Shown: piece after piece, positions 5,290 through 6,299 of the stretch
How positions within the stretch are numbered: the first letter of the stretch is position 1
How the letters are laid out: every line of letters begins with the position of its first letter
Assembly (NCBI RefSeq): GCF_001280205.1
Contig: NZ_CP012573.1
Location: 2,666,001-2,730,000, forward strand
Reading direction: 5' to 3'
Source of the DNA: Clavibacter capsici
Lineage (GTDB): Bacteria > Actinomycetota > Actinomycetes > Actinomycetales > Microbacteriaceae
DNA: 64,000 nucleotides
Notes under the pieces: generated by a model
Told to the model about the DNA's origin: nothing
What the model saw: the letters and a program-made list of their open reading frames with translations, nothing else
The model's database searches: none
Made by a program: the position numbers and the translations under genes

Positions 5290-5318
5290 AGAGTACGCGA
5301 TCGGAGCGGATCAGGCAA
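5290..5318 (-). promoter_or_regulatory. Promoter of the rplM-rpsI-glmM operon
   Basis: On the minus strand, -35 TTGCCT (5313-5318) and -10 TACTCT (5290-5295) are separated by exactly 17 bases. The predicted transcription start is near 5283. The -35 overlaps the stop codon of truA. Confidence 0.65.
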
Positions 5319-6299
5319 TCCCGGGCGTGTCGGCCAGCCGTGCGAGGTCGCGGGCGGCCTGCTCGGCGCCGTCGACGACCGGATCCACCTCGTGCGCGCC
5401 CCGCCGGTTCCGGGTGATCGCGTTGCGGGCCTCGAGCTCCTCGTCCGCCGGGTAGCCGACCCTCTCGAGCACGAGCCCGCGTGCCGGCATGACGCTGAAC
5501 TCGCTGGTGCGCTCGCGGATCTCGAGCAGCTCCCGCAGGCGGGCGACGGTCGCCCGGCCGGACGCCGCCGCGACGCACGCGCCGACGAGCGCGCGCACCA
5601 TGCTGTGGCAGAAGGCGTCCGCCCGCACGACCGCCTCGAGCGCGCCGTCCGCCGCGCGCGTCCACGTCAGCTCCTGCAGCGTGCGGATGGTCGACGCGCC
5701 CTCGCGCGGCTTGCAGTACGCGGCGAAGTCGTGGAGCCCCAGGAGCGCGTCGGCGGCCTCCTGCAGCCGGGCGTCATCGAGCTCGACCGGCACCTCGACC
5801 GTGCGGTGCCGCTGCAGGGGGTCGCGCGGGCCGGCGGCGTCGGCGATCCGGTAGCGGTAGGCCCGCCAGGTCGCGGAGAACCTCGCGTCGAAGCCCGCGG
5901 GCGCGGGGGCGCACGCGAGCACCACCACGTCGGAGCGCGCGCCGAGCACGCCGTTCAGGCGCCGGGCGAGCGCGGGCGCGGCGCGCTCCACGGACGGGAC
6001 GTGCGGCCCTCCCCCGCGGCGTCCGTCGCGGCACGGCCGCGCGGCGGTCGGTCGAGGGAGGCCACCTGCTCGTCGGTCAGGTCGAGATGGGCCACCTGGC
6101 CGGTGGCGTGCACCCCCGCGTCGGTGCGGCCGGCGACGACCAGCGCCGGCGCGGGCGGCGTGCGCGCGAGGAGCTGCGCGAGCGCGTCCTCGAGCACGCC
6201 CTGCACCGTGCGGAGGCCGGGCTGCTTCGCCCAGCCGGCGAACCCGGTGCCGTCGTAAGCCACGTCGAGGCGGACGCGCGCGCCGCCGTCCCCGGTCAT
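5311..6299 (-). pseudogene. truA: tRNA pseudouridine(38-40) synthase TruA, split by an apparent frameshift
   Basis: TruA makes pseudouridine at positions 38-40 of the tRNA anticodon stem. The N-terminal part reads from an ATG at 6299 (MTGDGGARVRLDVAYDGTGF, with catalytic-Asp motif GRTDAGVHA). The C-terminal part, from about 5991 down to a stop at 5311, continues in a different frame (ERAAPALARRLNGVL, FSATWRAYRYRI, HSMVRALVGA). One extra G in the five-G run at 6011-6015 (written C on the plus strand) would join the halves into a protein of about 329 residues reading GGGPHVPSVERAA across the junction. The break lies in a poorly conserved part of the family. It may be a real mutation, a slippery tract or a sequencing error. 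TruA normally follows rplQ in actinobacteria. The ATG overlaps the stop of the GNAT gene by 4 bases. Confidence 0.8.

What the first reader, a model, noticed from the sequence alone, without database searches (positions are those of the whole stretch)
5311..6299. truA is split by a probable single-base loss in a G run
The N-terminal third of TruA, with the catalytic aspartate motif, reads in one frame and the rest in another. Adding one G to the five-G run at 6011-6015 gives an uninterrupted protein of about 329 residues. TruA loss is tolerated in bacteria but affects tRNA fidelity. Programmed slippage is also possible.
Basis: seen in the sequence. Interest (0 to 1): 0.7.

Follow-up and report, generated by a model that had tools for sequence, protein, structure and literature searches.

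The report
Frame-broken truA, likely sequence error
In this bacterial genome record the gene for a common tRNA-modifying enzyme is cut in two by a reading-frame slip that none of the relatives examined show, most likely a sequencing slip or else a very recent loss of the gene, with no sign of a new mechanism.

Summary
The frame break is in the record. The first third of TruA, with the AGRTDAGVH motif, reads in one minus-strand frame and the rest in another. No second TruA was found in the genome. The genome is Clavibacter capsici PF008: its 3,241,713 bp equals the published size.

Of 17 sister species, 16 have truA on one contig, and all 16 read through in one frame (322-336 codons); the 17th is cut by contig ends. 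In the 80 family loci fetched, the motif and the C part share one frame in all 80 (76 by script, 4 by eye).

The break lies in a variable linker.

Both pieces show ordinary purifying selection, so the break is a record error or a very recent mutation. I found no sign of programmed slippage. A limited survey of 400 kb found one other candidate frame break, in a putative lipoprotein gene, and no others that I judged credible. Reads or conspecific strains would decide; neither was available.

The parts
5955..6299 (-). TruA N-terminal piece: ATG at 6299, stop at 5957-5955; about 82 conserved residues with the AGRTDAGVH motif, then an out-of-frame tail
5311..5991 (-). TruA C-terminal piece in another frame (226 aa from GTG at 5991; the frame is open upstream to 6630)
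5989..6053 (-).
   Evidence: coordinates
6296..7438 (-). Upstream GNAT acetyltransferase gene whose stop overlaps the truA start; unbroken neighbour, a relative lies upstream of truA in 16 of 16 resolvable sisters

Best explanation
An ordinary truA in which the deposited sequence lacks frame continuity within the GC-rich linker between the two conserved parts, because of a residual base-calling or assembly error in the PF008 record. On this reading the living strain makes a normal TruA of about 329 residues that converts U38-40 of tRNAs to pseudouridine. Shown: the frame break, its absence from the relatives that could be judged, ordinary constraint on both pieces. Inferred: that the cause is sequencing and not mutation.
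For: The break is private to this record: 16 of 16 resolvable sisters have one frame, and in the 80 family loci that one search kept the motif and the C part share one frame in 80 (76 by script, the other 4 by eye). Natural loss of truA is therefore not seen in this sample. No decay: median pairwise dN/dS of the two pieces together is 0.136, inside the range 0.114-0.167 of the 16 sisters. This sequence has 2 private amino acids against 14 private codons with a shared amino acid, the lowest ratio of the 17. The catalytic motif is intact in its frame. No second TruA was found. A second frame break private to this record among the four genomes compared lies about 55 kb away in a putative lipoprotein gene. 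The site is very GC-rich, which is hard to sequence (inference).
Against: No general excess of breaks: with the strict screen truA is the only frame break flagged in this genome (124, 128 or 138 ORFs tested in region 1, by reference; 58 or 67 in region 2), and the numbers of flagged places are like those of the sisters. Counts of G or C runs are close to those of three sisters. I saw no reads, nor the sequencing method of PF008 (Bae et al. 2015 seen only as a citation). GenBank data list 79 pseudogenes for this genome (PMC5358740 Table 2), so true breaks may exist in number.
Confidence: 0.57

Rival explanations
1. A genuine, very recent frameshift mutation that inactivated truA in PF008, perhaps during culture. 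The two fragments are not functional and tRNAs lack pseudouridine at 38-40.
For: The frame break is in a complete-genome record without a visible excess of breaks. truA is nonessential in E. coli (PMC9481147, passages). 79 pseudogenes are recorded for this genome.
Against: No trace of relaxed constraint. Loss is seen in 0 of 16 resolvable sisters and 0 of the 80 family loci kept.
Confidence: 0.36
2. Programmed or frequent slippage (a -1 ribosomal shift, or polymerase slippage) joins the two frames so that some full-length TruA is made.
For: The two frames overlap over a long open stretch. The offset is in the -1 direction, and TruA-deficient E. coli and P. putida show raised -1 frameshifting in reporters, P. 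aeruginosa not (PMC9481147, passages).
Against: No shift is needed in 16 of 16 resolvable sisters although 12 of them share the five-G run. The RNA from 6010 to 5930 folds no better than shuffles (z +0.87). Five-base G or C runs are common (302 in 200 kb).
Confidence: 0.04
3. Two separately translated fragments, the second started at the GTG at 5991, reassemble into an active split TruA.
For: The C frame has a GTG at 5991, upstream of the N-frame stop at 5957, with an SD-like GGAGG upstream.
Against: The spacing from the SD-like stretch is long, about 16 bases. In most sisters a like stretch is plain coding sequence of an unbroken gene. No split TruA is known to me (recalled, not searched).
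Confidence: 0.02

Closest known systems
TruA, tRNA pseudouridine(38-40) synthase (TIGR00071; solved chains 1dj0_A, 2nqp_A)
   Same: Both halves match the family in order; the N piece has the AGRTDAGVH motif
   Different: The halves lie in different frames in this record; neither alone reaches the family cut-off (73.6 and 73.5 against 142.85 bits)
Single-base frame breaks in bacterial genome records (sequencing error or pseudogene; kind recalled)
   Same: A frame offset in one gene that is unbroken in the relatives that could be judged, without decay
   Different: Nothing distinctive found
Programmed ribosomal frameshifting (dnaX, prfB type; recalled)
   Same: Overlapping open frames with an offset
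   Different: No conservation of the shift, no structure above chance

Membership tests
TruA (TIGR00071) | N-terminal half with the catalytic Asp motif | tested here: met
   P0001 matches TIGR00071 3-70, E 1.8e-20; aligns with AGRTDAGVH of 1dj0_A
TruA (TIGR00071) | C-terminal half | tested here: met
   P0002 matches TIGR00071 77-227, E 2e-20
TruA (TIGR00071) | One protein over the curated cut-off | tested here: not met
   The pieces score 73.6 and 73.5 bits apart, cut-off 142.85; the gene was not read through
Pseudogene | Broken frame where relatives are unbroken | tested here: met
   16 of 16 resolvable sisters read through in one frame; 1 of 17 could not be judged
Pseudogene | Relaxed constraint after the break | tested here: not met
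   dN/dS within the sisters' range, private amino-acid changes few; a very recent break would look the same
Pseudogene | Same break in reads or other strains of the species | not testable with these tools
   The genome search holds one genome per species; no reads held
Programmed frameshifting | Shift conserved in relatives | tested here: not met
   0 of 16 resolvable sisters have a shift
Programmed frameshifting | Stimulatory RNA structure near or downstream of the site | tested here: not met
   5930-6010 minus strand, one stretch tested: z +0.87; 157 of 200 shuffles fold at least as well
Programmed frameshifting | Slippery sequence | tested here: inconclusive
   a five-G run is present, but such runs are common and 12 of 16 unshifted sisters have it
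Assembly error | Excess of frame breaks in the record | tested here: not met
   flagged places in region 1, strict screen: 6 here, 4, 5 and 6 in three sisters; beside truA one further candidate frame break in the looser screen; the gene caller was crude
Assembly error | Reads disagree with the record | not testable with these tools
   no reads held

The most novel reading that the evidence does not exclude
The break is real and partly self-correcting: loss of TruA raises -1 ribosomal slippage (about 1.5-fold in E. coli and 2.2-fold in one P. putida reporter, not in P. aeruginosa; PMC9481147, passages), and the two truA frames are offset in that same direction, so low TruA would favour translation of full-length TruA, a feedback loop like that of release factor 2 (recalled).
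Probability: 0.02. Interest if true: 0.75.

Novelty: not a real feature. Interest (0 to 1): 0.1.

Why it matters
It matters mainly for annotation: the type-strain record of a pepper pathogen appears to lack a tRNA-modifying enzyme that every relative that could be judged here keeps. If the break is real, PF008 would be a natural TruA-deficient strain; [quoted passage not shown]

Tried and rejected
A second TruA copy as a backup: none found. A seat in the five-G run: not supported. A stimulatory RNA fold: none above chance in the one stretch tested. Promoter-like or terminator-like signals at 5100-6700: none found (sigma-70 type consensus only). Under-calling of G or C runs: not seen in one 200-kb region against three sisters.

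Other breaks in this genome. Genes were called by my own crude rule (ORF length and GC by codon position). It called truA in only 1 of 3 reference sisters, so real genes are missed and false ORFs are included. The first screen, against one sister, flagged 9 frame splits and 7 places with stops; I did not inspect each, and relied on the next screens, which ask that two other sisters be unbroken. The looser of these flagged 8 places here, and 11, 9 and 8 in G017, G015 and G010; the strict one flagged 6 here, and 4, 5 and 6. I inspected all the places flagged here. Beside truA one looks like a credible frame break: a 168-residue putative lipoprotein (name from its look, no family search), in one frame in three sisters and in two here, about 55 kb from truA and outside the window. 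The strict screen dropped it because one part is 73% identical. The rest I judged false: stops ahead of the likely start (rpoB, a PhoU-like and a LysR-like gene, names recalled, and one more), or ORFs whose codon-position GC looks antisense or low-complexity. Region 2 flagged 1 place here, and 2 and 3 in two sisters; the one here looks like a false ORF from its printed translation. Places flagged in sisters were not inspected.

Literature. One paper in the library holds the whole words Clavibacter and truA (listing only). The PF008 genome paper (Bae et al. 2015) was seen only in reference lists, and a search for its title words gave no copy among the 5 of 638 papers listed. Another C. capsici strain, RA1B, is named in PMC12089995 (passages); no conspecific genome came up, and says that near records may be left out.

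Full report
What is there. On the minus strand TruA begins with ATG at 6299 and reads in one frame to a stop at 5957-5955 (114 aa); the rest of the protein reads in another frame to a stop that ends at 5311 (226 aa from a GTG at 5991). The first piece matches TIGR00071 positions 3-70 and the second 77-227. Both also match Pfam PF01416 and solved TruA chains; the first aligns with the AGRTDAGVH stretch of 1dj0_A. A search of the whole genome with PF01416 gave two matches at E 0.001 or better, both at this place, so no backup copy was found.

Which genome. The genome has 3,241,713 bases in 3 contigs. Table 2 of PMC5358740 (section 11 read) gives 3,241,713 bp and two plasmids for Clavibacter michiganensis subsp. 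capsici, strain PF008 (passages), now C. capsici (PMC5882085, passages). The genus holds C. sepedonicus, a quarantine or regulated pathogen that I recall from control lists, so I kept the pieces apart and mended nothing.

Relatives. A DNA search of the 18 held genomes of the genus (this one included) found a match in all 18. In 16 of the 17 sisters both pieces lie on one contig in the same frame; in the 17th, G003 (620 contigs), the gene is cut by contig ends and cannot be judged. Reading from the start of the N alignment gives 322-336 codons to the first stop in 16 of 16 sisters and 114 here; the linker between the aligned pieces is 63, 66 or 69 bases in the sisters and 65 here. Of these 80, 76 have the motif in the same open frame as the C part; the other 4 carry RTDVG or RTDTG in that frame, seen by eye.

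Where the frame changes. The change falls in a GC-rich linker that varies in sequence and length among sisters. Runs of exactly five G or C number 302 in 200 kb here, against 298-310 in three sisters. Nothing ties the break to that run.

Age of the break. Median pairwise dN/dS against the sisters, both pieces together, is 0.136 here; the 16 sisters range from 0.114 to 0.167. This sequence has 14 private codons with a shared amino acid and 2 with a private amino acid, the lowest ratio among the 17. These are simple counts (Nei-Gojobori, private codons), not a branch model. They show no decay, so the break is very recent or not real.

Quality of the record. I compared 200 kb around truA with three sisters, testing ORFs that are unbroken in two of them. 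By reference genome 138, 124 or 128 ORFs were tested here in the strict screen, and truA is the only frame break it flagged; stops at five other places lie in what I judge false ORFs or false 5' extensions. A looser screen also flagged a putative lipoprotein gene of 168 residues, unbroken in three sisters and in two frames here. It looks like a second credible break, about 55 kb from truA. A second 200-kb region gave 58 or 67 ORFs tested and one flagged stop, in what looks like a false ORF. Sisters had similar numbers of flagged places in region 1 (4, 5 and 6 against 6 here, strict; 11, 9 and 8 against 8 here, loose), which I did not inspect. The ORF caller was crude: it called truA in only 1 of 3 reference sisters, so breaks can be missed and the tested ORFs include false ones. 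This record has no visible excess of breaks; a residual error rate of the order of one in some hundred kilobases would still fit (inference).

Slippage. The C frame lies in the -1 direction from the N frame (308 bases from 6299 to 5991), and the frames overlap over a long open stretch. The RNA from 6010 to 5930 folds no better than shuffles (z +0.87). None of the 16 resolvable sisters needs a shift. Slippage is therefore unlikely. It is kept as the bold reading because TruA loss raises -1 frameshifting about 1.5-fold in E. coli and 2.2-fold in one P. putida reporter, but not in P. aeruginosa (PMC9481147, passages).

Verdict. A sequence error is my first choice (0.57), a recent real mutation second (0.36). 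The first is favoured because truA is kept by every relative that could be judged and shows no decay; it is weakened by the lack of an excess of other breaks and by the lack of reads. If the mutation is real, TruA loss would matter for translation and mutation frequency (PMC7822408, abstract).

Noticed in passing
6296-7438 minus strand: A GNAT acetyltransferase (380 aa) sits directly upstream of truA and its stop overlaps the truA start. A relative is found in 17 of 18 genus loci examined (this one included; the 18th starts at a contig end) but in only 11 of 80 family loci at E 1e-6, not all of them directly beside truA.
   Followed up: partly
G000:C1 about 2616018-2616520, outside the window: A putative lipoprotein gene of 168 residues reads in one frame in three sisters and in two frames here: a second candidate frame break in this record.
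   Followed up: partly
L020 and L021 (genome G003): In one fragmented sister assembly the truA gene is cut by contig ends, which may mean that this GC-rich stretch is hard to sequence.
   Followed up: no
L003-L019, linker between the TruA pieces: Clavibacter TruA has a variable GC-rich linker after the motif-bearing part; the family profile has only positions 71-76 between the two matches, and the solved chains are 249-279 residues long against 322-336 codons in the sisters.
   Followed up: no
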